In this document: positions 6,287-50,492 of the stretch, one piece after another
How the letters are laid out: every line of letters starts with the position of its first letter
Numbering within the stretch: the first letter of the stretch is position 1
DNA from: Dokdonia pacifica
GTDB taxonomy: Bacteria > Bacteroidota > Bacteroidia > Flavobacteriales > Flavobacteriaceae
NCBI RefSeq assembly: GCF_900188275.1
Contig: NZ_FZNY01000004.1
Coordinates: 124,001 to 188,000, forward strand
DNA: 64,000 nucleotides
Direction: 5' to 3'
Notes under the pieces: model-generated
Seen by the model: only the letters and a program-made list of their open reading frames with translations
Told to the model about the DNA's origin: nothing
The model's database searches: none
Made by a program: the position numbers and the translations under genes

Positions 6287-8377
6287 ATGCAAAGTTTTAG
6301 AACAGAAATAGAAAACCCTTTGGTAGAAAAAGATATTATCGAGCTTGCCGATAAGATTGAGCTTTTTCACAAAGGAAAGATAGACGAAGAGCGTTTTAGA
6401 AGTCTTCGTCTAGCGAGAGGTGTATACGGACAGCGTCAGCCTGGTGTACAGATGATACGTATTAAACTTCCTTATGGGAAAGTGTCTAGTGCACAATTAC
6501 ATAGAATAAGCGATGTCTCTGATGAATATTCTAGAGGACGTTTACATATTACTACGCGTCAGGATATTCAAATTCATTATGTAGACTTAGATCGTACGCC
6601 AGAATTATGGGCGCAGCTTGAAAAAGATGATATTACACTGAGAGAGGCTTGCGGAAATGCAGTGCGTAATGTAACGGCTTCTGAACTGGCAGGAATCGAT
6701 CCGGAAGAACCATTTAATGTGTCTCCATATGCAGATGCAATTTTTAAATTCTTTCTAAGAAATCCTATTGGTCAGGAGTTAGGTCGTAAGTTTAAAGTCT
6801 CTTTTTCTTCTTCAGATCGCGATACAGGATTATCTTATATGCATGATCTAGGTTTTATAGCCAAAATAGAAAATGGTGTACGCGGATTTAAAGTAATGCT
6901 TGCTGGTGGACTAGGGTCTCAACCTAGACATGCAGATGTGTTTTATGAATTCTTACCATCAGATAAGATCATTCCATTGATGGAAAGTGTGATACGCATA
7001 TTTGATCGTCACGGAGAACGAAGAAGTAGAGCCAAAGCACGTTTGAAATTTTTAGTAAAAGATATAGGTTTAGATGGGTTTAAAGAACTAATAGAAGCTG
7101 AGCAAAAAGCATTATCACAACATACTGTGCCTATTGATGTGACTTCATATCCTCCAACTGTTCCCGTAGAAATCAACTCAATTCCGAAAGTGCAAATAGA
7201 AGATCATAAAGCATATGAACTTTGGAAAAGCACGAATATCATTACTCAAAAACAAGAAGGGTTTGTAGCAATAGGTATTAAAGTACTCTTAGGAGATTTT
7301 TATACAGATAAAGCGAGGTTACTAGCAGATTTAGTAGATCAATATGCGACTAGTGAGGTACGATTAACATTGCGTCAAAACATTGTAATTCCTTATGTAA
7401 AAGAAGCGCTTATCCCATTCTTTTATAAAGAATTAAAAAAACTTGGATTCACAGAAGTAGGATATAATAAAGCAGTAGATATTACGGCATGCCCCGGTAC
7501 TGATACCTGTAATTTAGGGATTGCAAGCAGTACCGGAATTGCCGAAGAGTTAGAGCGTGTTCTTAAAACAGAATACCCACAGTATTTAGAAGACCAAGAT
7601 CTGGTGATCAAAATAAGTGGATGTATGAATGCATGTGGACAACACAATATGGCAAATATTGGCTTTCAGGGAATGTCTGTGCGTACAAAAGATAAATTGA
7701 CAGCACCAGCACTGCAAGTACTTTTAGGAGGAGGAAACAATGGAAATGGACAAGGTGTATTTGCAGATAAAGTAGTAAAAGTACCTAGTAGAAGAGGGCC
7801 AGAAGCGCTACGCAGAATTTTAAATGATTTTGAAGCAAATGCTAATGGCACCACGTTTCAAGAATATTATGCATTGCAAGGTGAAAAATATTTCTATGAA
7901 TTATTAACGGATCTTTCAAACGTAGATAATCTTACGCAAGAAGACTTTATCGATTGGGGAGAAGAAGAAAAATATGTAAAAGCAATAGGAGTAGGAGAAT
8001 GCGCAGGTGTAGTGATAGATCTTATTGAGACACTCTTTTTAGAGTGTGAAGAGAAGATCGAAAATGCAAAACAATCTTTAAACGACGCGGTGTATTCTAA
8101 CGCTATTTATTATGCTTATAGTTCGTTGATTAATGCTGCAAAAGCAATTCTAATTTCAGATAGACAACGCACCAATACACAAGCAAGCATTGTAAGACAA
8201 TTTGATGAATTGTATGTAGATACAGAAAAAATCCCTTTAGGAACTTCTTTTAGTGATTTGATATATCAAATTCAAGAATATGCTCCAAGTCAGGAGTTTG
8301 CAACGAGTTATATTAAAAACGCAGCACAGTTTCTGCAAAAAACAAGAGCATACCGAGTTGCAGAACTGGTATCATAA
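6287..8377 (+). CDS. cysI: Siroheme sulfite (nitrite/sulfite) reductase with C-terminal HEPN-like domain
   Basis: 696 residues. Two half-repeats of the ferredoxin-like/siroheme-binding fold (RGRLHITTRQDIQIHYVDL near residue 84; RLTLRQNIVIPYV near 365), then the cluster ligands C402 and C408 (CPGTDTC) and C446 and C450 (CMNAC). This is the [4Fe-4S]-siroheme site that reduces sulfite to sulfide with six electrons. After the reductase ends near residue 560 there is an extra helical domain (about 580-690, NAIYYAYSSLINAAKAIL) that resembles a HEPN domain but lacks the R-x4-6-H nuclease motif. Ferredoxin and its reductase lie downstream, so ferredoxin is the probable donor. A nitrite-reducing role cannot be ruled out by motifs but the operon argues for sulfite. 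Confidence 0.93.
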   Translation: MQSFRTEIENPLVEKDIIELADKIELFHKGKIDEERFRSLRLARGVYGQRQPGVQMIRIKLPYGKVSSAQLHRISDVSDEYSRGRLHITTRQDIQIHYVDLDRTPELWAQLEKDDITLREACGNAVRNVTASELAGIDPEEPFNVSPYADAIFKFFLRNPIGQELGRKFKVSFSSSDRDTGLSYMHDLGFIAKIENGVRGFKVMLAGGLGSQPRHADVFYEFLPSDKIIPLMESVIRIFDRHGERRSRAKARLKFLVKDIGLDGFKELIEAEQKALSQHTVPIDVTSYPPTVPVEINSIPKVQIEDHKAYELWKSTNIITQKQEGFVAIGIKVLLGDFYTDKARLLADLVDQYATSEVRLTLRQNIVIPYVKEALIPFFYKELKKLGFTEVGYNKAVDITACPGTDTCNLGIASSTGIAEELERVLKTEYPQYLEDQDLVIKISGCMNACGQHNMANIGFQGMSVRTKDKLTAPALQVLLGGGNNGNGQGVFADKVVKVPSRRGPEALRRILNDFEANANGTTFQEYYALQGEKYFYELLTDLSNVDNLTQEDFIDWGEEEKYVKAIGVGECAGVVIDLIETLFLECEEKIENAKQSLNDAVYSNAIYYAYSSLINAAKAILISDRQRTNTQASIVRQFDELYVDTEKIPLGTSFSDLIYQIQEYAPSQEFATSYIKNAAQFLQKTRAYRVAELVS

Positions 8378-12924: not shown

Positions 12925-12954
12925 CAGGAATAAAAGTTCAGTGCATTTTGAGAA

Positions 12955-13055
12955 GTTATCAAGAAAGGCGGAGGGAATAGACCCTGTGAAACCTTAGCAA
13001 CCCTTTCTCTTGAAAGAAGGTGCTACATTCTATCCTGATTATAGGAATAGATAAC
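12955..13055 (+). ncRNA. SAM-I (S-box) riboswitch aptamer
   Basis: P1 is a perfect 6-bp pair, GTTATC (12955-12960) with GATAAC (13050-13055). Between them come the S-box signature elements in order: AAGAAAGGCGGAGGGA, CCCTGTGAAACCTTAGCAACC, a helix with AAGGTGCTA, and a P4-like helix in the last third. It lies 124 nt upstream of the methionine synthase genes. By family knowledge SAM binding closes P1 and turns the downstream genes off. The leader after P1 (13056-13178) has a small CAAAC/GTTTG hairpin, but I cannot identify a clear intrinsic terminator, so the switch mechanism is open. Confidence 0.93.
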
Positions 13056-13178
13056 CCCAAACAATGGTTTGTAAACCCGTGTTCATTCTTGATATAATAA
13101 GTGTTCTTGTAGTTCATAAAAACTATAAGACTACCTCTTTTCAATAGTTTTTGTACAGAGATTGACTAGAAAAGAAAA

Positions 13179-39756: not shown

Positions 39757-40419
39757 ATGGGATTACTATCAAAAAAAGATCAAAAGTTAATTCTTGATCC
39801 ATTAGCAGACGATAACCCAATCACAATACAAGTATTAGGTATTTGTTCTGCATTAGCAATTACAGCACAATTAAAAGCATCTATTGTAATGTCTATCTCA
39901 GTATTATTTGTACTGGGAGTAGGAAACGTAGTGATCTCGCTTATGCGAAATATCATTCCTTCTAAAATTAGAATTATTGTACAGTTAATTGTTGTTGCAA
40001 CACTTGTAATTATAGTAGATCAAGTTCTAAAAGCGTATGCATACTCTCTGAGTAAAGAACTTTCAGTATTTGTAGGACTTATTATTACAAACTGTATCAT
40101 TATGGGACGTTTTGAAGCCTTTGCTTTAGGAAATGGTCCTTGGCGTTCTTTCCTTGATGGAATAGGAAATGCTCTTGGATATGGTGTAATATTAATTATT
40201 GTAGGATTCTTTAGAGAGCTTTTAGGGTCAGGTACATTACTTGGATTTAAAGTATTAGGAGACCCAATAGGTGATCCAGTAACAGGACCAACAGGATTGT
40301 ATTCAATCGGGTATGAAAATAATGGGTTTATGTTATTATCACCTATGGCATTGATTGTTGTTGGACTTATTATATGGGTTCAACGTAGCCGTAATAAAGC
40401 ATTAATTGAAGAAAATTAA
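39757..40419 (+). CDS. nqrD: Na+-translocating NADH:quinone reductase subunit D
   Basis: 220 residues, six membrane helices. DPLADDNPITIQVLGICSALA at the start and LIITNCIIMGRFEAFAL with the conserved cysteine that, with that of NqrE, holds the intramembrane iron centre. Paralogous to NqrE. The 50-nt space to nqrE contains a palindrome. Confidence 0.96.
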   Translation: MGLLSKKDQKLILDPLADDNPITIQVLGICSALAITAQLKASIVMSISVLFVLGVGNVVISLMRNIIPSKIRIIVQLIVVATLVIIVDQVLKAYAYSLSKELSVFVGLIITNCIIMGRFEAFALGNGPWRSFLDGIGNALGYGVILIIVGFFRELLGSGTLLGFKVLGDPIGDPVTGPTGLYSIGYENNGFMLLSPMALIVVGLIIWVQRSRNKALIEEN

Positions 40420-40435
40420 AAGGATGTTGAATACA

Positions 40436-40447
40436 CTTTCGCGAAAG
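40436..40447. repeat. TTTCGCGAAA palindrome between nqrD and nqrE
   Basis: Symmetric over 12 nt, with ACA/AAAGCG flanks that have lost symmetry. It sits within an operon, so it cannot be a strong terminator here. Confidence 0.85.
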
Positions 40448-40469
40448 CGAAACATTCAAAATATATAAT

Positions 40470-41198
40470 ATGTTAGAACACGTTGAATTATTTTTTAAAT
40501 CTATCTTTATAGATAACATGGTATTTGCAACCTTCCTTGGGATGTGTTCATACCTAGCTGTATCTAAAAAAGTAAGCACAGCTGTTGGATTAGGAGCTGC
40601 TGTTGTTTTTGTACTTGCAGTAACGGTTCCTTTAAACTGGTACTTGGATCAATACATATTGAGAGATGGAGCTTTAGGAACTTGGTTAGGACCTGAATAT
40701 GCAGATTACGATTTGAGTTTCTTATCCTTTATTTTATTCATTGCAACTATTGCAACCATGGTACAATTGGTAGAAATTGTAGTAGAAAAGTTTTCTCCAT
40801 CACTATATAACTCATTAGGTATTTTCTTACCACTTATTGCTGTAAACTGTGCCATTCTTGGAGGATCATTATTTATGCAATCTAGAGATATCCAAAGTGC
40901 AGGTTTAGCATTGAACTATGGAATATCTTCTGGAATTGGATGGTTTTTAGCGATTGTAGCGATTGCTGCAATTAGAGAAAAAATTAGATATTCAAATGTG
41001 CCTGCACCACTTAGAGGGTTAGGGATTACATTTATTATTACAGGACTTATGGCTATTGGGTTTATGAGTTTTGGAGGGATGTTAACTGGTGGTGATGAAG
41101 AAGAAGAGACTACTCCAGTAGCAGAAGTTGCTCCTGTAAAAGAAATGACAAAAGAGGCTAGTGATGAGCTAGTTTTAACTACAAACGAAAAAGAATAA
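40470..41198 (+). CDS. nqrE: Na+-translocating NADH:quinone reductase subunit E
   Basis: 242 residues. FFKSIFIDNMVFATFLGMCSY and LIAVNCAILGGSLFM give the two conserved half-channel motifs with cysteines. About six helices, then an Asp/Glu-rich cytoplasmic or periplasmic tail of about 40 residues (GGDEEEETTPVAEV) that is longer than in Vibrio NqrE. Confidence 0.95.
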   Translation: MLEHVELFFKSIFIDNMVFATFLGMCSYLAVSKKVSTAVGLGAAVVFVLAVTVPLNWYLDQYILRDGALGTWLGPEYADYDLSFLSFILFIATIATMVQLVEIVVEKFSPSLYNSLGIFLPLIAVNCAILGGSLFMQSRDIQSAGLALNYGISSGIGWFLAIVAIAAIREKIRYSNVPAPLRGLGITFIITGLMAIGFMSFGGMLTGGDEEEETTPVAEVAPVKEMTKEASDELVLTTNEKE

Positions 41199-41202
41199 TC
41201 AT

Positions 41203-42510
41203 ATGTTATTAGTTGCTAGTATGTCTGGCGTTATAATCGCCACGATTGTTGCCTTTTTAGTACTTACACTATTATTAGTGGGATTACTATTATTTACAAA
41301 ACAAAAATTATCTCCTTCAGGACCAGTGACCATTACAATTAATGGAGAAAAAGAAGTAGAAGTTGCCTCTGGAGGAACACTATTATCTACCTTAGGTAAT
41401 AATAAAATATTCTTACCATCTGCATGTGGTGGTGGTGGAACTTGTATTCAATGTGAATGCCACGTATTAGAAGGTGGAGGAGAAGCATTGCCTACAGAGA
41501 CACCTCACTTTAGCCGTAAAGAACTGGCTCATGGAGCACGTCTTGCTTGTCAAGTAAAAGTAAAGCAAAACATGAATATCACAATTCCAGAAGAAGTATT
41601 TGGAATTAAAAAGTGGGAAGCTACGGTGGTGCGTAATTATAATGTTGCTTCTTTTATCAAGGAATTTGTTGTTGAGATTCCTGAAGATATGGGATATAAA
41701 GCAGGAGGATATATTCAGATTGAAATTCCAGATTGCGAGATTAAGTATTCAGATATAGATATTACAGCGCATCCGGAAGAGCATGATACACCAGACAAAT
41801 TCCAAGCAGAGTGGGATAAGTTTGGTTTATGGCCACTTGTGATGAAGAATAGTGAAACTGTAGAGAGAGCTTATTCTATGGCTTCTTTCCCAGCAGAAGG
41901 ACGTGAGATTATGTTGAATGTTCGTATTGCTACACCGCCATGGGATCGTGCTAAAAATCAATGGATGGATGTAAACCCAGGTGTTGCATCCTCTTATATA
42001 TTTGCCCAAAAACCAGGTGATAAAGTAATTATTTCTGGACCTTATGGCGAATTCTTTATTAATGAATCTGAATCTGAAATGTTATATGTAGGTGGAGGAG
42101 CAGGAATGGCACCAATGCGTTCGCATTTATATCACCTATTCAAAACACTAAAAACTGGACGTACAGTTACCTATTGGTATGGAGGTCGTTCTAAGCGTGA
42201 GTTATTCTATCTAGAGCACTTTAGAGCATTAGAAAGAGAATTTCCAAATTTCAAATTTTACTTAGCACTTTCTGAACCTTTAGAAGAAGATAATTGGAAA
42301 GTAAAAGATACTACCGAAGGAGAAGGAGATGGATTTGTAGGATTTATTCACCAAGTAGTGATAGATCAGTATTTGAGTAAACACGAAGCTCCTGAAGATA
42401 TTGAGTTATATTTCTGTGGTCCTCCATTAATGAACAATGCCGTTCAGAAAATGGGAGAAGATTTTGGGATTCCAGATGAGAATATCCGATTTGATGACTT
42501 TGGAGGATAA
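41203..42510 (+). CDS. nqrF: Na+-translocating NADH:quinone reductase subunit F
   Basis: 435 residues. N-terminal membrane helix (VIIATIVAFLVLTLLLVGLLL), [2Fe-2S] domain with C75, C81, C84 and C116, then FAD domain (ERAYSMASFPAEG) and NADH-binding domain (GGGAGMAPMRSHLYHL; ending YFCGPPLMNNAV...FDDFGG). It is the electron entry subunit that oxidises NADH. A terminator follows within 35 nt. Confidence 0.97.
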   Translation: MLLVASMSGVIIATIVAFLVLTLLLVGLLLFTKQKLSPSGPVTITINGEKEVEVASGGTLLSTLGNNKIFLPSACGGGGTCIQCECHVLEGGGEALPTETPHFSRKELAHGARLACQVKVKQNMNITIPEEVFGIKKWEATVVRNYNVASFIKEFVVEIPEDMGYKAGGYIQIEIPDCEIKYSDIDITAHPEEHDTPDKFQAEWDKFGLWPLVMKNSETVERAYSMASFPAEGREIMLNVRIATPPWDRAKNQWMDVNPGVASSYIFAQKPGDKVIISGPYGEFFINESESEMLYVGGGAGMAPMRSHLYHLFKTLKTGRTVTYWYGGRSKRELFYLEHFRALEREFPNFKFYLALSEPLEEDNWKVKDTTEGEGDGFVGFIHQVVIDQYLSKHEAPEDIELYFCGPPLMNNAVQKMGEDFGIPDENIRFDDFGG

Positions 42511-42544
42511 TTTCATTCCTATAAAGTTAAAAATCTTGTAATAT

Positions 42545-42577
42545 AAAACCTCGATGCACTTTTGTGTCGAGGTTTTT
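42545..42577 (+). terminator. Terminator of the nqr operon
   Basis: AAAACCTCGA pairs with TCGAGGTTTT, inner CAC with GTG, loop TTTT, then a T run. It lies 35 nt after the nqrF stop and can work in both directions. Confidence 0.9.
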
Positions 42578-42599
42578 ACTTTTAATTTATAGTCGTTTT

Positions 42600-42623
42600 T
42601 ATACGCTTTCGCGAAAGCGTATA
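42600..42623. repeat. Full-length 24-nt TTTCGCGAAA palindrome
   Basis: Perfect from TATACGC to GCGTATA, in the gap between convergent nqrF and the next leftward gene. Confidence 0.95.
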
Positions 42624-42638
42624 TAACATGAATACGTT

Positions 42639-43802
42639 TTAATCATATTCACTTATACCATATAAGATTTCTTTCATTTTACTCCCATTAATTTCTACGG
42701 GTTTATATGCAGTATTAAATTTCTCAATGGCAATAATGATATTTTCCTTTAGCTTTTTATATTCTATAGGAATTTCAGTACTACACTGCTTTTCATTTTC
42801 ATAGCTATTAAGCATAATGCCAAACTTTTCATAGAATTTTCCGCCCTGATCAATGAAACTATTGTATTGCGTAATAAATTGTAAAAGTCTATCAATAGGA
42901 AATTCTAAATTAACTTGCATTTTATGGGCTTTGTAACGTTTACTTTCGTCTAGAATGGCTTCGTTTAACGCATCTATATAGGTGCCTAAATGATCATGAA
43001 TACTTGACCAGTCATCCGTATTTCTACATTCTTTTAAGGGAACACGATATTTTATGGGCTTTGTAAAATCTACAAATAATTGCTCTAGTTGATCAATAGT
43101 ATTATCATTACTCTTTTGTAAAAATGCTGTTTCAAAATAGATAGTTTTTAGATCTGTGTGCATACGTAATGTAAAATCTAAGATACACTCAATCTCTTTG
43201 ATGTTTGTTTCCTTTTCATATTTTGGAGCATTACTAGTAAATAACGACACTAAAGAATGTACAACAGATGTGTATATATTATCTCCTAATATTTCTGTGA
43301 GATTAAAGCCTTGTTTTTTGTTTGCGTTACTTCTAATATCTTCTTTATGCTTTACAAACCTTGGGTAGTAATTTGGATTGCTTAGATTGTTTATTTCGTT
43401 AAATGTTGCTACAGATGCAAAATGATGATCTAATGACAGCATCTTTTCATATAGTAGTTTGATAATTTGCAATCCTTTTAGATACCTGATTTTACTTACA
43501 TCAGAGATTTCTGATAAATTATTTACTTTTAATTTTTCGGTTAGTTCCTCTTTTAAAAGGAGTAAATTAATTTTTTGATTGATTGTCGTAGCTTTTTTTT
43601 GAGAGATAGATATGTTAGAAATATCGGTATAAATATCACTCCTAATGTCATCATAATAAGTTGTGATTTCAGAAACCTCATTAGCCCATTCGACAAGGAT
43701 TATATTGATTTTTTCTTCTAAGTCATTGTTTGTAGAAGCATATATATTACTAGTTATAAGTATAGCTGATAATATGATTGTGTGTTTTATAAAGGGTATC
43801 AT
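42639..43802 (-). CDS. Secreted hypothetical protein, long helical
   Basis: 387 residues from the ATG at 43802, which opens a proper signal peptide (FIKHTIILSAILITSNIYAS); an ATG 39 nt upstream would overlap the preceding gene. The mature protein is almost all helical and charged, with few cysteines (ECRNTD, EKQCSTE, KEIECIL). No family recognised. It follows the 148-residue secreted protein by 1 nt, so the two form one operon and probably act together. Confidence 0.6.
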   Translation of the reverse strand: MIPFIKHTIILSAILITSNIYASTNNDLEEKINIILVEWANEVSEITTYYDDIRSDIYTDISNISISQKKATTINQKINLLLLKEELTEKLKVNNLSEISDVSKIRYLKGLQIIKLLYEKMLSLDHHFASVATFNEINNLSNPNYYPRFVKHKEDIRSNANKKQGFNLTEILGDNIYTSVVHSLVSLFTSNAPKYEKETNIKEIECILDFTLRMHTDLKTIYFETAFLQKSNDNTIDQLEQLFVDFTKPIKYRVPLKECRNTDDWSSIHDHLGTYIDALNEAILDESKRYKAHKMQVNLEFPIDRLLQFITQYNSFIDQGGKFYEKFGIMLNSYENEKQCSTEIPIEYKKLKENIIIAIEKFNTAYKPVEINGSKMKEILYGISEYD

Positions 43803-43803
43803 A

Positions 43804-44250
43804 CTACTGTAATTTAAATGAGATGGTAATCGTATCATCAAAAATGGTTAAGGGATATAATCCTTTATGAATTATAATATCTTCCCTTCCTATTTGAAGT
43901 TGTTGTGCAATGGTGTTAGGTATAATAAAATCATCATCCATGAGATAATACAATTCAGTACTAGGAGTATTGTCTTGTAGATTCTCTCTTAGTATTAGAA
44001 ATTCCTCTTCTTCATTCAACATGGGACGATTAATAAGTAGTAGTATCGTATTGTTTATATGATCATATGTAATAGTTGTATTTAGATCAGCCTCTTTTAC
44101 ATTAGCGTCCATATTACAAAGTCCATGTGTTCCTCTGCAATGCCTTCCTTTAAAACTAGTTTTAGCTGTAACAATTGTATCATTAGTGCTAGATTGAGCA
44201 AAACTAAAATAGGGTAGGCAACAAAAAATGATAAGTAATGTGTATTTCAT
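43804..44250 (-). CDS. Secreted hypothetical protein
   Basis: 148 residues. Signal peptide 1-18 (LLIIFCCLPYFSFA), then a beta-rich mature part with C-x5-C near its start (RHCRGTHGLCNMD) and DDFIIPNTIAQQLQIG near the end. No family recognised. It lies 115 nt after the cysteine-rich protein gene and is coupled to the 387-residue protein. Confidence 0.6.
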   Translation of the reverse strand: MKYTLLIIFCCLPYFSFAQSSTNDTIVTAKTSFKGRHCRGTHGLCNMDANVKEADLNTTITYDHINNTILLLINRPMLNEEEEFLILRENLQDNTPSTELYYLMDDDFIIPNTIAQQLQIGREDIIIHKGLYPLTIFDDTITISFKLQ

Positions 44251-44365
44251 ACTATTGTTTTTATAAAAGGTGCCTTAGAGATTATGTATGTACCAAGACA
44301 CCTTTTGAATTATACGTTGCTATGAGGTGTTCTAAATTTGAACTATGAATGATTTGTATTAATCA

Positions 44366-45019
44366 TTAACAACCGTTAACACATTGTGCATAGGTTACAT
44401 CACATTGGTGAAGAGCAGCTGCCTGTGCTGCGAGAACTGCTGTATGACAAGCAATACCTAAGATCACTGTTACATCAGCAGCACCGCATCCAATATGTGC
44501 GGCAACGGCTGCTGTAGTCGCAACGGCATAACATGCTGTACGAGCATCTGCGCAAAGTTCTAAACATTCATTCGTATTACCTCCAACATCTCCGTCGTCA
44601 ATAATTACTGGTAATGCCGCTTTAAAGTTTCTACTATTCATAGTTGTTAGACCTATTTGGTTTAGCTGGCTTTTAGAATACTTACTTATGTTATAATCTT
44701 TTTCAAGTGATTTTATAACCGCTATCTTACTTTTAAGAGCACGTTCATAATCTGCTCTACTTTTATATCCTGCAAGCGTTGAAATCTTATTAATATCAGC
44801 ATTACTTAAACTTTCTTTAGAATCATAGCTTGCTAATGTTTTTAAGTCTTTTGCTTTATTTACTAATTGAAGTTGATCTTGTAATAATCCTATAAAACGA
44901 GCATCTGAACTTAACTCTTGAATAGATCTATAGGATGTTTCTTCTTTTGGATTTACAGTAAATGAGAATATTAAAATACTCGCAATTAATACAAATAGTG
45001 TTGTGATAATTTTTTTCAT
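44366..45019 (-). CDS. Secreted protein with C-terminal mirrored cysteine domain (A)
   Basis: 217 residues. Signal peptide 1-21 (VLIASILIFSFTVN), a charged helical middle (30-130), then a Gly/Asn linker and a hydrophobic, alanine-rich C-terminal domain. Its eight cysteines stand at 152, 156, 163, 178, 191, 206, 213 and 217: C-x3-C-x6-C at the start and C-x6-C-x3-C at the end, a mirror image. Such a hydrophobic domain closed by disulfides recalls halocin-C8-like bacteriocins, but I do not claim that family. The layout propeptide plus Cys domain could be a secreted toxin or signal precursor. Confidence 0.6.
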   Translation of the reverse strand: MKKIITTLFVLIASILIFSFTVNPKEETSYRSIQELSSDARFIGLLQDQLQLVNKAKDLKTLASYDSKESLSNADINKISTLAGYKSRADYERALKSKIAVIKSLEKDYNISKYSKSQLNQIGLTTMNSRNFKAALPVIIDDGDVGGNTNECLELCADARTACYAVATTAAVAAHIGCGAADVTVILGIACHTAVLAAQAAALHQCDVTYAQCVNGC

Positions 45020-45129
45020 GATTCTTGGTTTTTGAAGAGATAATTTATCTCTATGGTTATTTTTAATTTATTTTTAAAACAGTGTGTTGTTTATGAAAAG
45101 ATGATTGTTATGTTTGATTAATAGTATTA

Positions 45130-45765
45130 TTAGCAAAGATCTAGACAGACATCTAAAACGACTTCACATGCAATTGCGCAGGCTGTAAAGACTCCCACTC
45201 CTATTACATCATAAATTCCTGGTAGAATAGTGTCTTGAATGGCAATCGTGATTCCTGTTACCCCACAACCTATCATACACCCAACATAACCTGCCCAACA
45301 TAATGACTCACATACGCCAACTTCAGATGGGTTGCTACTGCTTGTTTTATGAATAAATCCAGATTGTGCTTTTTCAAAATCAGGAACTAATCTTTTTGAT
45401 TCATTGTTATATACTCTAGGAATTATAAATTGTTGATTAGTCTCAATGTTGGTTTGAATAATTGCCTTGTCAGTAATTGAGGTAATTAATTTTCTTCCAT
45501 CCATTTCTACATAATAACTCTGTAAAGAATTTTCATTATGTATTTTATATGCTTCTACATTTATGATGCCTTTGTCTGGAACGTTGACACTATAGGTTTG
45601 ATAGGAGCCTATATCAACTTGCTCATAAACATTTGGAAAATCAGCTTTTAGTGTTTTTAACTGCTGTGTTTCGTCTAACAATAATTCACTATTGTCATCG
45701 CTACAACTCATGATGAAGAATAACACTAAAACAAGAGTTCTTATAATAAAGAAATTACGTTTCAT
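45130..45765 (-). CDS. Lipoprotein with C-terminal mirrored cysteine domain (B)
   Basis: 211 residues. Lipoprotein signal with lipobox FIMSC (C21). A middle beta-type part (about 40-135, YSVNVPDKGIINVEAYKIH), then the C-terminal domain with cysteines at 152, 156, 163, 167, 196, 200, 207 and 211: two identical C-x3-C-x6-C-x3-C clusters separated by a hydrophobic, Gly/Ile-rich loop. Domain size, position of the first cysteine (152 in both) and the outer spacing agree with protein A, while the N-terminal parts differ. I infer a shared, perhaps secreted-effector, domain. Confidence 0.6.
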   Translation of the reverse strand: MKRNFFIIRTLVLVLFFIMSCSDDNSELLLDETQQLKTLKADFPNVYEQVDIGSYQTYSVNVPDKGIINVEAYKIHNENSLQSYYVEMDGRKLITSITDKAIIQTNIETNQQFIIPRVYNNESKRLVPDFEKAQSGFIHKTSSSNPSEVGVCESLCWAGYVGCMIGCGVTGITIAIQDTILPGIYDVIGVGVFTACAIACEVVLDVCLDLC

Positions 45766-45782
45766 AATAAATAAGATTTTGA

Positions 45783-45866
45783 TTAATAATTAAAACTTGA
45801 TGGCCATTTCGATACATCAAATGTTTCTAATTTTAAGGAGTATTCAAAAGGTTGTATCTGAGCCAT
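45783..45866 (-). CDS. Possible 27-residue leader peptide
   Basis: A short frame MAQIQPFEYSLKLETFDVSK followed by WPSSFNY and TAA, ending 17 nt before the lipoprotein start codon. Its composition looks coding-like, but no initiation signal is visible and length gives little statistical weight. Confidence 0.22.
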   Translation of the reverse strand: MAQIQPFEYSLKLETFDVSKWPSSFNY

Positions 45867-45873
45867 TTATAAA

Positions 45874-45907
45874 AAAAGAGTCGTCTTTTATAAAAAGCGA
45901 CTCTTTT
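45874..45907. terminator. Terminator-like hairpin in a divergent intergenic region
   Basis: AAAAGAGTCG and CGACTCTTTT pair over 10 bp with a 14-nt loop, A/T tracts on both sides. It lies between two divergent genes rather than after one, so it may be an attenuator or end a small unseen transcript. Confidence 0.6.
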
Positions 45908-46030
45908 ATATTTACGCTAAATAATTGATAATAAGATACTTAGTGTTGTTGTGAAACTAAGCTCAAAAAGCTATCTTTAAATACCTCATTTCCAGTAATA
46001 CATAGCCTCTTTTATAGAAATACTATATAT

Positions 46031-47746
46031 ATGTGTGTTAGATACCCCCTGTTTCAAATAGTGTTAGGAGTTTTTGTTATGCCATTTTTATATGGACAAT
46101 CAGTTGCAGATTCACTTCATCAAAAAGCGTATGAAGAATTACGAAATGGTTTTCTAACTAATTTTATTCAAAAAGATACGATTCAAGCTCATCTATATGC
46201 TAATATCTACTTTAATAAAGCTAAAATTGATAAGGATCAATCACAATTAGTAAATGGATATTACTATAGATCATTATTAGAATATAATGAAGATAAACGG
46301 TTAGCTTTTCTAGATTCTATAATAGACATCTCTAAAAATTTTAGAAATAAAAACTTTCCTACCGTTAGTTATTATGATAAGGGAGCTTATTACCATAAAA
46401 GGGGACAGTTTAAATTAGCATTAGATAACTTTTTACAAGCACTAACCTATAATAAGGGTGATAATAAGGAATATTTAGAATTTTTATTAAATCAAGCTAT
46501 TGGAATTTTAAAAATAGAAATTGATGAAAATGAAGAAGCACTTACTTTAATTAAAAGTTGTTGGAAATATGTAATTGACAATAATTTTAGGGAAGAAAAT
46601 CCTGAAATGTATTTCAATGTACTGCATTCTCTTGCAAACTCTTATCGGAAAACAAATTTTTTAGATTCTGCAAGAGTATATACCCGATTAGGATTAATAG
46701 ATGAAAATACCACGAGAGGTGGTGTGAATTATAATAAGTTTTTATTACTCAATGGAATACTTGAAACCTATACAACAAATTATACAGAAGCTGAAGCCCA
46801 ATTATCACAGGCAATATCAAAATTTGATAATAAAACAGATAAACGATTAATTTCTGCGGGCTATTATTTTTTAGGAAAAACTAATTTATTATCAGGTAAT
46901 GAAGAGAGAGCAGTTGCTTATTATAAAAAAGTAGACAGCCTTTTTGAAGTTAATAAAGACATTCTTCCAGAGCATATAGGAGGCTATCAACACATCATTA
47001 AGTATTATAAAGAACATAATAATATAGAAGAAGAGTTAGAGTACACTCAAAAACTAATCACAGTTGATAGTTTTTTAAACAAAAACTATAGAGCATTAAA
47101 TAAGGAAATTATAAAGCGTTACGAAATACCAAAGTTGGTAGAAGGTCGTGATATTCTTATTGGCAAATTAAAAAACGATCAAAAACAATCTAGGCTATAT
47201 AATATAATAGGTTTTGGAGCCATATTTTTAATTTTAGGAATAGCTATTTTTCAATATCAGAAAAGGCGTTTATATAAAAAACGATTTTTGGATATTATTA
47301 ATAAAGACAATGACGGTACTGTCATCGTAAGAGAAACACCTTTAAAAAGTGTAACAAAAGAAGAATCTATAGAGATTCCACAAGAAACCATAGATGATAT
47401 TTTAGAAAAATTGCAGGTCTTTGAAAAGGATGAATCTTATATAAATGTAAATGTTACTTTACATAGTCTAGCAGATAGCTTAGGTACAAATAATAGTTAT
47501 CTGTCAAAGGTGATCAATTACTATAAAAAAACAAGTTTCTCTACCTATATAAAACAATTGCGTGTCGCTTATGCATTTAATAAGTTAAAACAAGACACTA
47601 CTTTCAGGAAGTATACCGTAAAAGCAATAGGTCAAACATGTGGTTTTAAAACTGCCGAATCTTTTTCAAAAACTTTTTTTAAAGTATATGGTATTTATCC
47701 CTCCTACTTTATCAAACAGTTAGAAAAGATAAAAGCTGATAATTAG
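46031..47746 (+). CDS. TPR-containing membrane regulator with AraC-type DNA-binding domain
   Basis: 571 residues. Signal-like N-terminus (FQIVLGVFVMPFLYG), a periplasmic array of TPR-like helices from about 30 to 360 (YYDKGAYYHKRGQFKLALDN, GYYFLGKTNLLSGNEERAVA), one membrane helix at about 391-410 (IIGFGAIFLILGIAIFQYQ) and a cytoplasmic AraC HTH pair at about 470-570 (TLHSLADSLGTNNSYLSKVI, VKAIGQTCGFKTAESFSKTF). This is a one-component transmembrane sensor-regulator form common in Flavobacteriia. It is divergent from the cysteine-domain proteins and followed by the lanthipeptide-like gene, so either may be its target. Confidence 0.82.
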   Translation: MCVRYPLFQIVLGVFVMPFLYGQSVADSLHQKAYEELRNGFLTNFIQKDTIQAHLYANIYFNKAKIDKDQSQLVNGYYYRSLLEYNEDKRLAFLDSIIDISKNFRNKNFPTVSYYDKGAYYHKRGQFKLALDNFLQALTYNKGDNKEYLEFLLNQAIGILKIEIDENEEALTLIKSCWKYVIDNNFREENPEMYFNVLHSLANSYRKTNFLDSARVYTRLGLIDENTTRGGVNYNKFLLLNGILETYTTNYTEAEAQLSQAISKFDNKTDKRLISAGYYFLGKTNLLSGNEERAVAYYKKVDSLFEVNKDILPEHIGGYQHIIKYYKEHNNIEEELEYTQKLITVDSFLNKNYRALNKEIIKRYEIPKLVEGRDILIGKLKNDQKQSRLYNIIGFGAIFLILGIAIFQYQKRRLYKKRFLDIINKDNDGTVIVRETPLKSVTKEESIEIPQETIDDILEKLQVFEKDESYINVNVTLHSLADSLGTNNSYLSKVINYYKKTSFSTYIKQLRVAYAFNKLKQDTTFRKYTVKAIGQTCGFKTAESFSKTFFKVYGIYPSYFIKQLEKIKADN

Positions 47747-47766
47747 TGTGATTTCTAAAAAAATTG

Positions 47767-47788
47767 GTCTGCTTTTATAAAAGCAGAC
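47767..47788 (+). terminator. Terminator after the AraC-type gene
   Basis: A 22-nt perfect inverted repeat GTCTGCTTTTATAAAAGCAG(AC), 20 nt after the stop, rich in A/T at its centre. Confidence 0.65.
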
Positions 47789-47862
47789 TAACAGTTAAGT
47801 AAAGTATTTAGATAGTAAGATATTTCTGTATAAATTTATAATGAACTAAAAATCAAACCATC

Positions 47863-48063
47863 ATGAAAAAATTAAATGAATCTTCAGAACTATCATTAAA
47901 AAGAGAGAAAATTGCAAAGCTTAACAATGCTCAAATGAAGCATATTTTAGGAGGAAATCAAGCAAATATGTCTACAGAGGAAATTCTTACTTCTTCTTGG
48001 AGATGCCTCACTAGTTTGACGATCAACTTGACATACGACACAACTACTACAGACGGAGATTAA
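47863..48063 (+). CDS. Class I lanthipeptide-like precursor (GG leader)
   Basis: 66 residues. LSLKREKIAKLNNAQMKHIL then GG at 31-32 is the Bacteroidota leader of the type xLxLxKxxIAxLNxxQMxxIxGG; the core of 34 residues has several Thr/Ser and one Cys (SSWRCLTSL, YDTTTTDGD). By family such peptides are processed after GG and, with LanB/LanC, get (methyl)lanthionine rings. No such enzymes, cyclase or peptidase-containing ABC exporter lie in the window, so it is an orphan. It is followed by a good terminator, so it is monocistronic. Confidence 0.75.
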   Translation: MKKLNESSELSLKREKIAKLNNAQMKHILGGNQANMSTEEILTSSWRCLTSLTINLTYDTTTTDGD

Positions 48064-48090
48064 TAACCTTTCATTGGTAACAAGCATTAA

Positions 48091-48120
48091 ACTCTACATT
48101 GTACTATGTAGGGTTTTTTT
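48091..48120 (+). terminator. Terminator of the lanthipeptide-like gene
   Basis: ACTCTACAT pairs with ATGTAGGGT over a TGTACT loop, followed by eight T. Confidence 0.85.
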
Positions 48121-48143
48121 ATACGCTTTCGCGAAAGCGTATA
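48120..48143. repeat. Full-length 24-nt TTTCGCGAAA palindrome
   Basis: Perfect TATACGC...GCGTATA, directly abutting the T run of the preceding terminator. Confidence 0.95.
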
Positions 48144-48184
48144 TCTAAGCACAAGAAACTTGGCTTTTTAGAGTTATACTAGTA

Positions 48185-49054
48185 ATGAAGAAATTAATAC
48201 TCGGTCTTATCGTAATTATAGGATTGCTTGTTTTTTTAAACTTTTCCAGAGGAGGAAAAGTGGTTAAAAATACGGTAGCATCTTATGTTGCTCCAACATC
48301 TTTAATACATAAAGAAGGGCGTACTATAAAAACACGAGTTAAAATCCCAGATGGGTATACGCGAGTGCTTTCTGAAGAAGGTACATTTGCTCATTACATT
48401 CAAAATTATCAACTTAAGGAAGCAGATGCTCAAGTGATCAATTATGATGGGAGTCCCTATATTTTCCAACATGGACATGTAGGAGTTTTGGAAGTACCTG
48501 TACCTTCTAATGGATTACAGCAATGTGCCGATGCATTGATTAGATTGCGGTCAGAATTTTTGTGGGAGACGAATAGGAAAAATGAAATAGGGTTTAATTT
48601 TACAAGTGGTCATTACTGCTCTTGGTCAAAATATGCAGAAGGATATAGACCTAAGATTAATGGGAATAAAGTAACCTTTTCCAAAACCGCAACGGCAAAT
48701 GCTTCCAAAGAAAATTTTTATAAATACCTTAACCTTGTATACACCTATGCAGGTACCTACTCACTATCTCAAGAATTAAAAAAAGTACATACGTTATCTG
48801 AAGTGATGATTGGTGATTTATTGATTTATCCTGGGTTTCCTGGTCATGTGATGATGGTAGGTGATATTATTGAAAATGATAGTGGAGAACGCCGTTATGT
48901 CTTCTTTCAAGGAAATACGCCAGCACAAAGTGTACATATTATTAAAAACGTTTCGGATACAGAAATAAATCCTTGGTATGATCTCAAAGGAAAGACATCA
49001 CTAGAAACCCCTATTTATAGATTTTCAAGCTTTGAAATGGTACGATTTAAATAG
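48185..49054 (+). CDS. DUF4846 family protein
   Basis: 289 residues. N-terminal membrane anchor (LILGLIVIIGLLVFLNF), then the DUF4846 pattern: IPDGYTRVLSEEGTFAHYIQ, LQQCADALIRLRSEFLWETN, IGFNFTSGHYCSWSKYAEGY, and near the end IGDLLIYPGFPGHVMMVGDI and FFQGNTPAQSVHI. The late His/Asp block recalls NlpC/P60-like peptidases, but the enzymatic role is not known. Likely extracytoplasmic. Confidence 0.85.
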   Translation: MKKLILGLIVIIGLLVFLNFSRGGKVVKNTVASYVAPTSLIHKEGRTIKTRVKIPDGYTRVLSEEGTFAHYIQNYQLKEADAQVINYDGSPYIFQHGHVGVLEVPVPSNGLQQCADALIRLRSEFLWETNRKNEIGFNFTSGHYCSWSKYAEGYRPKINGNKVTFSKTATANASKENFYKYLNLVYTYAGTYSLSQELKKVHTLSEVMIGDLLIYPGFPGHVMMVGDIIENDSGERRYVFFQGNTPAQSVHIIKNVSDTEINPWYDLKGKTSLETPIYRFSSFEMVRFK

Positions 49055-49107
49055 ACATATACCCCTTCTTTTATAGCTAAAGACAAAAGAAATTACGAGA
49101 TAGGTAT

Positions 49108-49115
49108 TACCTTTG
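49108..49115 (+). promoter_or_regulatory. TAnnTTTG box directly before the 49120 start
   Basis: TACCTTTG ends 4 nt before the ATG, so transcription would begin at or just inside the start codon. Either the message is leaderless or this is a chance match. Confidence 0.3.
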
Positions 49116-49119
49116 TACT

Positions 49120-49482
49120 ATGGCAGTTTTTCTTACAGAACAAGAGTTACATAACCTCGCGATGAATATTGTTGGGGAAGATTTAAAAGAACAAGGCTAT
49201 GAGTTTATGGGCGTCAACTCTAAACTCAAAAAAGATCCTCAATTTGTAGCACTTAAAGACAAAAAATTGCACTTTGTTATTGTTAGAGCGATCACGTATC
49301 CCGATAATGCCAATGTGTATGATGAAGCTTTTATGCAAAAAATGAAGACACATGCCCTTAAATTTGAAGCACGTACTTTTTATGCAGGTGTAGGATTAGG
49401 ACATGGTGATAATTACCAACATCCTGCCGAAAAAGATGTACCATATACCATGATTTATAACGGACTTCAAGAAATTTTATAA
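49120..49482 (+). CDS. Conserved small protein encoded with apbE
   Basis: 120 residues, soluble, no signal peptide. YEFMGVNSKLKKDPQFVALK and KFEARTFYAGVGLGHGDNYQ suggest a compact alpha/beta protein that I know from Bacteroidota, where it is sometimes labelled as an Nqr F subunit; it has no Fe-S, FAD or NADH motif, so that name is not supported. Its stop overlaps the apbE ATG by one base. Role unknown. Confidence 0.7.
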   Translation: MAVFLTEQELHNLAMNIVGEDLKEQGYEFMGVNSKLKKDPQFVALKDKKLHFVIVRAITYPDNANVYDEAFMQKMKTHALKFEARTFYAGVGLGHGDNYQHPAEKDVPYTMIYNGLQEIL

Positions 49483-50492
49483 TGAGATACGTTACGTTAC
49501 TTTTAATAGCCTGTTTTATTTCTTGTACTCCAGAGGTGCCAAGTAAAATTACTATTCAGGGGGAAGCATTTGGGACCACGTATGCGATTACTTATTTTGG
49601 AAAAGGTAATAATTCACCACGTATGAAACGAGGAATCGATTCGGTGATTCAGGTGGTAAATAGGTCTATGAGTACTTATATCCCTGAGAGTGATATTTCA
49701 AAAATAAATAGAGGAGATAGTAGTATTGTAGTAGATGCTATGTTTAAAGATGTTTTTACGCTTTCGCGAAAAATACACAGATTGACCAATGGTTATTTTG
49801 ATCCAACAGTAGGCGGGTTACGTAATGCTTATGGGTTTGGCGATACAAAGCCACTTGCTGTGATAGACAGTGCGTCCTTAGACTCAATGATGCGTTATGT
49901 GGGACTAGAGAAAGTAAAGATTTTACCAGAAGGGACGATACAAAAAGAGTTTCCCGAAATTTATTTTGATTTTAATGCGATTGCAAAAGGTTATGGTATA
50001 GATAGGATAGCGGTATTCATGCAAGATCAAAATATTGATGATTTTTTAATTGAGTTAGGAGGAGAAATACGAGCGCAAGGAAAACACCAATTGAAAGATG
50101 CTTCTTGGACCGTAGGTGTAGAAAGTATTTATTCTTCTACAGAAGATAGAATAGCTACGGTAGCATTACGATTGGATGATAAGTCGATGGCGGGTTCAGG
50201 AAATTATCGTAAAAATAGAGTAGATCCACTCACAGGAAAGCAGTATGTACACACCATAAATCCATTGACAGGAAGTGCCGAAAAAAGCAATGTATTAAGT
50301 GCTAATGTAATTGCGTCTACATGCGCTGAGGCAGATGCTTGGGCCACTGCTTTTATGGCCATGGGATTAGAACGTTCTAAAGCCGTACTTGCGACTCAAA
50401 AAGGTATAGATGCCTATCTTGTATTTTCTAATGGAGAAAATTCAACAGGTACGTATATTACTAATGGATTTAAGGAATTGATAAACGACTAA
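49482..50492 (+). CDS. apbE: FAD:protein FMN transferase
   Basis: 336 residues. Lipoprotein signal (LLIACFISC), then the ApbE fold: GTTYAITYFG, MSTYIPESDISKIN, GYFDPTVGG, DFNAIAKGYGID, LIELGGEIRAQG, HTINPLTG and CAEADAWATAFMAMG. It couples FMN via phosphoester to the Thr of DxxSGAT motifs on the periplasmic side, and NqrB and NqrC encoded at 37.8-39.8 kb are the clear targets. A TTTCGCGAAA palindrome lies in the gene, read as TLSRKI. Confidence 0.95.
   Translation: MRYVTLLLIACFISCTPEVPSKITIQGEAFGTTYAITYFGKGNNSPRMKRGIDSVIQVVNRSMSTYIPESDISKINRGDSSIVVDAMFKDVFTLSRKIHRLTNGYFDPTVGGLRNAYGFGDTKPLAVIDSASLDSMMRYVGLEKVKILPEGTIQKEFPEIYFDFNAIAKGYGIDRIAVFMQDQNIDDFLIELGGEIRAQGKHQLKDASWTVGVESIYSSTEDRIATVALRLDDKSMAGSGNYRKNRVDPLTGKQYVHTINPLTGSAEKSNVLSANVIASTCAEADAWATAFMAMGLERSKAVLATQKGIDAYLVFSNGENSTGTYITNGFKELIND
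49762..49771. repeat. TTTCGCGAAA palindrome inside apbE
   Basis: Only the 10-base core is symmetric; TTACGC remains on the left. Read as LSRK, the same frame as in metZ. Confidence 0.85.

What the first reader, a model, noticed from the sequence alone, without database searches (positions are those of the whole stretch)
44366..45765. Two adjacent exported proteins share a mirrored cysteine domain at the C-terminus
Protein A has C-x3-C-x6-C ... C-x6-C-x3-C; protein B has C-x3-C-x6-C-x3-C twice. In both, the first cysteine is residue 152, the domain is about 60 residues, hydrophobic and at the very end, and the rest of the proteins are unlike. One is a lipoprotein, the other a Sec-exported protein. 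Mirrored spacing fits an antiparallel helical hairpin stapled by disulfides. A precursor-plus-cysteine-domain layout recalls proteolytically released bacteriocins such as halocin C8, but I cannot place the family. This is my best candidate for an undescribed system.
Basis: partly seen in the sequence, partly recalled or inferred. Interest (0 to 1): 0.75.

Follow-up and report, generated by a model that had tools for sequence, protein, structure and literature searches.

The report
Mirrored-cysteine helical hairpins in bacteriocin-like operon
A marine bacterium carries two neighbouring exported proteins whose tails are predicted to fold into a two-helix hairpin held by facing pairs of cysteines, and related gene clusters suggest they are a so far undescribed kind of antibacterial weapon.

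Summary
In both proteins all eight C-terminal cysteines are exactly mirrored (i + j constant: A 369, B 363); shuffles give this 64 and 92 times in 500,000. AlphaFold predicts an antiparallel two-helix hairpin for A (three sequences) and, from one sequence, for B: four facing pairs each. All seven A-family genes found keep the mirror, one with a diverged tail and longer loop. No significant Pfam, NCBIfam, PADLOC or PDB match. The shared residue 152 is coincidence. Context supports a bacteriocin-type reading: small membrane proteins, immunity candidates, follow A in 4 of 7 loci; A's N-domain recurs with another Cys-rich tail; the nqrF-DUF4846 site is empty in one relative and filled differently in others; the next genes, C and D, elsewhere end cassettes of varied exported proteins, once SdpC-like/SdpA/SdpB. 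Disulfides, release, killing and immunity are untested; the window has no obvious immunity gene; B has no homologue found. Best reading: a disulfide-stapled hairpin variant of secreted bacteriocin, closest in logic to gallocin A.

The parts
45130..45765 (-). Protein B, 211 aa, lipoprotein-type signal (by eye), beta-rich middle in the model, mirrored-Cys hairpin at the C-terminus
   Evidence: ORF; Cys spacing; model; no homologue
45133..45312 (-). B hairpin domain, residues 152-211, Cys spacing 3-6-3-28-3-6-3
44366..45019 (-). Protein A, 217 aa, Sec-type signal (by eye), helical N-domain (about 30-127), mirrored-Cys hairpin at the C-terminus
   Evidence: homologues
44369..44566 (-). A hairpin domain, residues 152-217, Cys spacing 3-6-14-12-14-6-3; inner six Cys invariant in all seven A-family genes
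43804..44250 (-). Protein C, 148 aa, exported (signal by eye), short Cys motif (HCRGTHGLC); homologue just upstream of D in 24 of 29 D loci
   Evidence: no family hit
42639..43802 (-). Protein D, 387 aa from the inner ATG suggested by the alignment (ORF listed as 400 aa from a TTG at 43841), exported (by eye), strongly conserved, no known family
46031..47746 (+). Divergent regulator: TPR repeats, a likely membrane helix (by eye), AraC-type HTH; related regulator in the stretch held for 9 of 29 D loci
47863..48063 (+). 66-aa peptide with class I lanthipeptide-type GG leader (NF038153, 30.7 bits, cut-off 22)

Best explanation
B-A-C-D is a bacteriocin-type cassette. A and B are Sec-exported precursors (A soluble, B lipid-anchored). 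Outside the cytoplasm their last 60-66 residues oxidise into an antiparallel two-helix hairpin closed by up to four facing disulfides (A: 152-217, 156-213, 163-206, 178-191; B: 152-211, 156-207, 163-200, 167-196). The stapled, mostly hydrophobic hairpin is the effector: after release by a protease, or while shown on the surface, it enters or blocks the membrane of related cells. A and B may act as a two-peptide pair. In relatives a small cationic membrane protein next to the A gene gives immunity. C and D are a cassette-wide accessory pair (export, maturation or protection) and the TPR/AraC regulator controls expression. Shown here: the cysteine mirror, its conservation, the gene order and the swapping at the site. 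Predicted by model: the hairpin. Inferred: signals, disulfides, release, killing, immunity, and the roles of C, D and the regulator.
For: Exact mirror in A, in all six A homologues found and in B, against 64 and 92 in 500,000 shuffles; Cys of each helix within 60-80 degrees at 100 degrees per residue. Hairpin in both models: A helices 151-180 and 185-216, B 146-179 and 184-210. G014 keeps the mirror although the tail diverged and the loop is one residue longer. Proteins of 82-91 aa with two or three hydrophobic segments and K+R above D+E follow A in G000:C9, G147, G296, G433, 4 of 7. A's N-domain without signal matches a protein with a different Cys-rich tail in G217 (E 5e-10), which the hairpin model does not match. 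Variable site: nqrF and DUF4846 lie 106 bp apart in G013; the site holds A with regulator and GG peptide in G014, A-C-D in G015, B-A-C-D with regulator and GG peptide here. D occurs in 32 of 397 family genomes at E up to 0.001, 27 with E of 4e-36 or better; C lies within 600 nt upstream in 24 of 29 loci examined, 17 of the 20 not used for the C model. D cassettes carry a SdpC-like/SdpA/SdpB set, Rce1-like CAAX proteases, a PLDc_N small membrane protein and, by eye, small exported proteins with Cys-, Trp/Cys- or Gly-rich tails in 20 of 29.
Against: No activity data. No small membrane immunity candidate next to A in the window, in G015 or in G014. B has no homologue in 59 relatives; among 329 family genomes 11 matched at E up to 0.01, the own genome and ten weak ones (best E 0.0013) that I take as lipoprotein signal or chance; so the pairing of A with B rests on one locus. 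The tails carry net negative charge (-1 to -6) and the G014 tail is not very hydrophobic (GRAVY 0.28), unlike classical cationic peptides. No protease recognised by eye in the window cassette. One of the four membrane proteins (G433) shows no significant similarity to the others. C-D accompany A in only 3 of 7 loci and occur without cargo that I could recognise in 9 of 29 (by eye). B was modelled from a single sequence, whole-model pLDDT 59.1, pTM 0.34; A from only three, and three of its five models had mean pLDDT of 50-56. Sulphur-sulphur distances could not be read.
Confidence: 0.55

Rival explanations
1. B is not a second toxin but the immunity partner of A: a lipid-anchored hairpin that mimics A and stays on the producer's surface, blocking A, as proposed for gallocin's hairpin-shaped immunity peptide GIP.
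For: B sits directly upstream of A, has the same kind of mirrored hairpin, looks like a lipoprotein, and the window lacks the small membrane protein seen at four other A loci. Precedent: GIP, modelled as a hairpin resembling the two gallocin peptides (PMC10100652, abstract and passages read).
Against: B was found only here; G015 has A without B and without the membrane protein. The spacing of B differs from A's.
Confidence: 0.2
2. The mirrored cysteines bind metal (copper or zinc) rather than form disulfides; A and B are exported metal-handling helical hairpins.
For: C-x3-C on helices recalls copper storage proteins (recalled, no call); H175 and H192 flank the inner Cys pair and are kept in five of the seven A-family tails (by eye).
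Against: No Pfam hit of A or B to a metal-binding family at E up to 1; both His are lost in G433 and G014 while the Cys mirror stays; B has no His in its tail; no metal genes recognised by eye among the ORFs.
Confidence: 0.12
3. A and B are signalling or structural surface proteins (pheromone, adhesin, matrix) whose stapled hairpins only stabilise them.
For: Linked TPR/AraC regulator and GG-leader peptide; no activity shown.
Against: Unlike tails, immunity-like neighbours and the association of C-D with an SdpCAB-like set fit toxins better than structural proteins.
Confidence: 0.15

Closest known systems
Gallocin A (GllA1/GllA2, class IIb two-peptide bacteriocin)
   Same: Two adjacent genes; 42- and 60-residue secreted peptides with few charged residues, modelled as antiparallel helical hairpins with facing Cys; reducing agents abolish activity (PMC10100652, abstract and passages read).
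   Different: One disulfide each, double-glycine leader and ABC export, Gram-positive; here four mirrored pairs, Sec-type export, a 150-residue region before the tail, Bacteroidota. Sequences were not compared directly.
Plant alpha-hairpinins and hairpin scorpion/cone-snail toxins
   Same: C-x3-C ... C-x3-C with Cys1-Cys4 and Cys2-Cys3 across two antiparallel helices; EcAMP1 pairs 7-29 and 11-25 follow the same constant-sum rule (PMC7191063, passages read).
   Different: Eukaryotic, much shorter peptides, two disulfides.
Nested-hairpin sactipeptides (thurincin H)
   Same: Four nested cross-links 4-28, 7-25, 10-22, 13-19, constant sum 32 (PMC8172795, passages read).
   Different: Thioethers made by radical SAM enzymes; none recognised by eye near A/B.
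Sporulation delaying protein SDP (SdpABC)
   Same: Sec-exported precursor with a C-terminal hydrophobic toxin (recalled); C-D homologues lie behind two SdpC-like genes, sdpA and sdpB in G013.
   Different: A and B do not match the SdpC model.
Halocin C8 / HalH4
   Same: Secreted precursor whose C-terminal part is the antimicrobial (PMC12893001, passages read).
   Different: No family match; Cys pattern not compared by alignment.

Membership tests
Class IIb (two-peptide) bacteriocin, gallocin type | double-glycine leader | tested here: not met
   A and B begin with Sec/lipoprotein-type signals (by eye); no NCBIfam hit at E up to 1
Class IIb (two-peptide) bacteriocin, gallocin type | two helical hairpins with facing cysteines from adjacent genes | tested here: met
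   (models only, one locus)
Class IIb (two-peptide) bacteriocin, gallocin type | dedicated immunity gene in the operon | tested here: inconclusive
   membrane-protein candidates at 4 of 7 A loci, none in the window
Class IIb (two-peptide) bacteriocin, gallocin type | synergistic killing | not testable with these tools
   needs bench work
SdpC family (TIGR04032) | sequence match to the SdpC model | tested here: not met
   no hit for A or B at E up to 1
Halocin C8 family | sequence match to a halocin model | tested here: not met
   no such Pfam or NCBIfam hit at E up to 1; I did not check that the libraries hold a halocin C8 model
Halocin C8 family | proteolytic release of the C-terminal domain | not testable with these tools
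   needs bench work
Sactipeptide | radical SAM enzyme in the cluster | tested here: not met
   none recognised by eye among ORFs 39757-50492; the seven proteins scanned gave no such enzyme family
Polymorphic toxin system | shared N-domain with exchangeable C-terminal domains | tested here: inconclusive
   one clear case of another tail (G217) and one diverged tail (G014)
Alpha-hairpinin | C-x3-C-xn-C-x3-C on a helix-loop-helix | tested here: met
   outer Cys of A, both ends of B, models; extra Cys between, so a likeness and not a claim of membership

The most novel reading that the evidence does not exclude
Flavobacteriaceae carry a modular Sec-dependent antibacterial cassette system: a swappable exported precursor with a cross-linked C-terminal mini-domain, a matching immunity or processing gene, and the conserved C-D pair. 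The form here is a hairpin closed by a ladder of up to four disulfides, working as a two-component pair; no listing or passage that I saw in ten paper searches described such a constant-sum cystine ladder in a bacterial toxin.
Probability: 0.4. Interest if true: 0.8.

Novelty: new variant of a known kind. Interest (0 to 1): 0.62.

Why it matters
Bacteriocins of marine Bacteroidota are little known (general knowledge, no call). If right, a cysteine rule simple enough to search for (all Cys at constant i+j) marks a new stapled-hairpin scaffold, and the D gene, with strong hits in 27 of 397 genomes sampled from the host's family, becomes a genomic flag for many further unlike candidate peptides and their possible immunity genes.

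Tried and rejected
Pfam, NCBIfam, PADLOC and PDB-sequence searches of A and B gave nothing significant: for A only an occludin chain at E 0.81, for B two sub-threshold DUFs of its N-terminal part (DUF4971 E 0.015, DUF4969 E 0.17). Foldseek against PDB with the A model: none at E up to 0.001, best E 1.3; B's fold was not searched. Viral contigs with the tail alignment and plasmids with full-length A: no relative. First genome-contig scan with A1: none; a scan with the tails of four members gave two genomes, both already known. Order-wide search: 9 of 395 genomes matched; only the own genome and G296 are real, the other seven match within profile positions 1-80, largely the signal peptide, and were dropped. 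In one search, 7 of 397 matched; I kept own, G147, G296, G433 and, for the N-domain only, G217; G398, G341 and a second G217 match were dropped as signal-peptide matches. Weak N-domain hits to two proteins that look like prolyl oligopeptidases (L017, L023) were dropped. The GG-peptide pattern in the script found 2 of 29 and missed the window's own peptide, so it was not used. Promoter-like sites were no more frequent than in shuffles (20 against mean 22.4). Rejected: meaning in the shared residue 152. D loci: 33 known from strong hits examined; G238, G245, G405 and G420 were not fetched. The split of 20 loci with and 9 without recognisable cargo is a reading by eye. DUF4846 was found in 7 of 18 genus genomes; the site was read in the own genome, G013, G014, G015, G011 and, in part only, G010 (contig end); G007 was not read.

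Only open-licence PMC papers are in that library.

Full report
What is there. On the minus strand lie, in transcription order, B (45765-45130), A (45019-44366), C (44250-43804) and D (43802-42639 if the inner ATG is used), between nqrF (41203-42510, named by eye) and a divergent TPR/AraC regulator (46031-47746) followed by a 66-aa GG-leader peptide and a DUF4846 gene. The host shares its genus with G015, whose matching public contig is titled 'uncultured Dokdonia sp.'.

The cysteines. All eight tail cysteines of A pair by a constant sum of 369, all eight of B by 363. The six A homologues give constant sums as well: eight Cys in G015 (379) and G014 (360), six in the own paralogue on contig C9 (325), G147 (385), G296 (337) and G433 (225). 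G014 is the telling case: its tail shares little beyond the cysteines, its loop is one residue longer, and the mirror still holds. Shuffling within the tail gives an exact mirror in 64 (A) and 92 (B) of 500,000 trials. Among 628 distinct ORFs held by then, the only other exact mirror of six or more Cys was one long repeat protein. At 100 degrees per residue the four Cys of each helix fall within 60-80 degrees. A constant sum is what facing residues of two antiparallel helices must show.

Structure. AlphaFold2 with three sequences gave A at mean pLDDT 75.2, pTM 0.73 (best of five models; the others 74.0 to 50.2): a helical N-domain and two tail helices 151-180 and 185-216, ten-residue blocks of 83-89 and 68 for the block with the turn. 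B, as a single sequence, gave a poor overall model (59.1, pTM 0.34) but tail helices 146-179 and 184-210 with blocks of 65-85 from residue 151 on. Coordinates could not be read, so sulphur distances were not measured. Foldseek found no significant PDB neighbour for A.

Family and distribution. A relatives at E up to 0.001: 3 of 59 relatives, own included; 7 of 397 family genomes, of which own, G147, G296 (Salegentibacter maritimus by the title of its matching contig) and G433 have the hairpin and G217 the N-domain only. B: own only, of 59; 11 of 329 genomes at E up to 0.01, all but own weak and judged by me to be chance or lipoprotein signal. No Pfam or NCBIfam model matched A, C or D at E up to 1; for B only two sub-threshold DUFs of the N-terminal region.

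Context. At 4 of 7 A loci the next gene is an 82-91 aa membrane protein with two or three hydrophobic segments and more K+R than D+E; G147 and G296 are similar at E 3e-6, G000:C9 and G296 at 0.001, G433 not detectably. At G000:C9 an RDD protein, C and D follow, with the related regulator upstream and two subtilase-like proteases beyond it (PADLOC subtilase hit for the one tested). At G147 a lipoprotein-like protein with a different Cys-rich tail lies close by; it is not mirrored.

The site. In G013 nqrF ends at 7397 and DUF4846 starts at 7504 of L114, an empty site. In G014 the site holds regulator, GG peptide and A; in G015 A, C and D; in the window B, A, C, D, regulator and GG peptide. In G011 an unrelated gene lies there. 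DUF4846 was found in 7 of 18 genus genomes; G010 could be read only in part and G007 was not read.

C and D. D homologues at E up to 0.001: 7 of 59 relatives and 32 of 397 family genomes, 27 with E of 4e-36 or better and five weak. I examined 29 of 33 strong loci. C lies within 600 nt upstream of D in 24 of 29, and in 17 of the 20 not used for the C model; a regulator like that of the window lies in the stretch held for 9 of 29. In G013 C-D follow two SdpC-like proteins (TIGR04032, 26.9 and 52.5 bits, below the cut-off of 99.2), SdpA and SdpB (above cut-off) and a DCC1 thiol oxidoreductase. Others hold small exported proteins with tails of unlike kinds: Trp/Cys-rich, Gly-rich hydrophobic, or Cys-rich with a CAAX protease beside them; nine of 29 hold nothing that I could recognise as such cargo. 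This range of tails in front of one conserved pair is the strongest contextual reason to read the cargo as competing weapons.

Mechanism. Shown: mirror, conservation, gene order, swapping. Predicted: hairpin. Inferred: disulfides, proteolytic release or surface display, membrane action, immunity by the small membrane proteins, an accessory role of C-D. Gallocin A shows that two disulfide-stapled hairpins can form a two-peptide bacteriocin and suggests that the immunity peptide imitates the hairpin (PMC10100652, abstract and passages); so B may be either a second toxin or a guard. I put bacteriocin-type action at 0.55 and the hairpin itself at about 0.85.

Novelty. Constant-sum cross-links are known from alpha-hairpinins (two disulfides; PMC7191063, passages) and thurincin H (four thioethers; PMC8172795, passages). 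A ladder of up to four disulfides on a Sec-exported bacterial precursor was not seen in the listings of the ten paper searches. I call it a new variant of a known kind.

Noticed in passing
47863-48063 (+): GG-leader peptide of class I lanthipeptide type beside the TPR/AraC regulator, with no LanB/LanC recognised by eye among ORFs 39757-50492; in G013 (L042 9096-13004) a like peptide and regulator are followed by a LanC-like gene (below-cut-off LanM match) and, by eye, a LanB-like gene.
   Followed up: partly
L028 3204-8602, L044 1503-5234, L043 8401-12002: A related regulator plus a GG-type peptide (by eye) recurs beside secreted protease-like proteins (subtilase type, or by eye prolyl oligopeptidase type), possible maturation enzymes.
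   Followed up: no
43804-44250 (-) and 42639-43802 (-): C and D, a conserved gene pair without any Pfam or NCBIfam match, marks cassettes of unlike exported proteins (C just upstream of D in 24 of 29 loci).
   Followed up: partly
L081 5173-6541, L083 5151-6557, L086 5127-6559: About 187-aa exported proteins ending in C-K-W-[YW]-[QE]-L-W-C-H-L plus a hydrophobic tail, followed by a lipoprotein-like protein (no Pfam match for the one tested, L083), in front of C-D.
   Followed up: no
12953-13057 (+): SAM riboswitch (RF00162, 75.3 bits).
   Followed up: no
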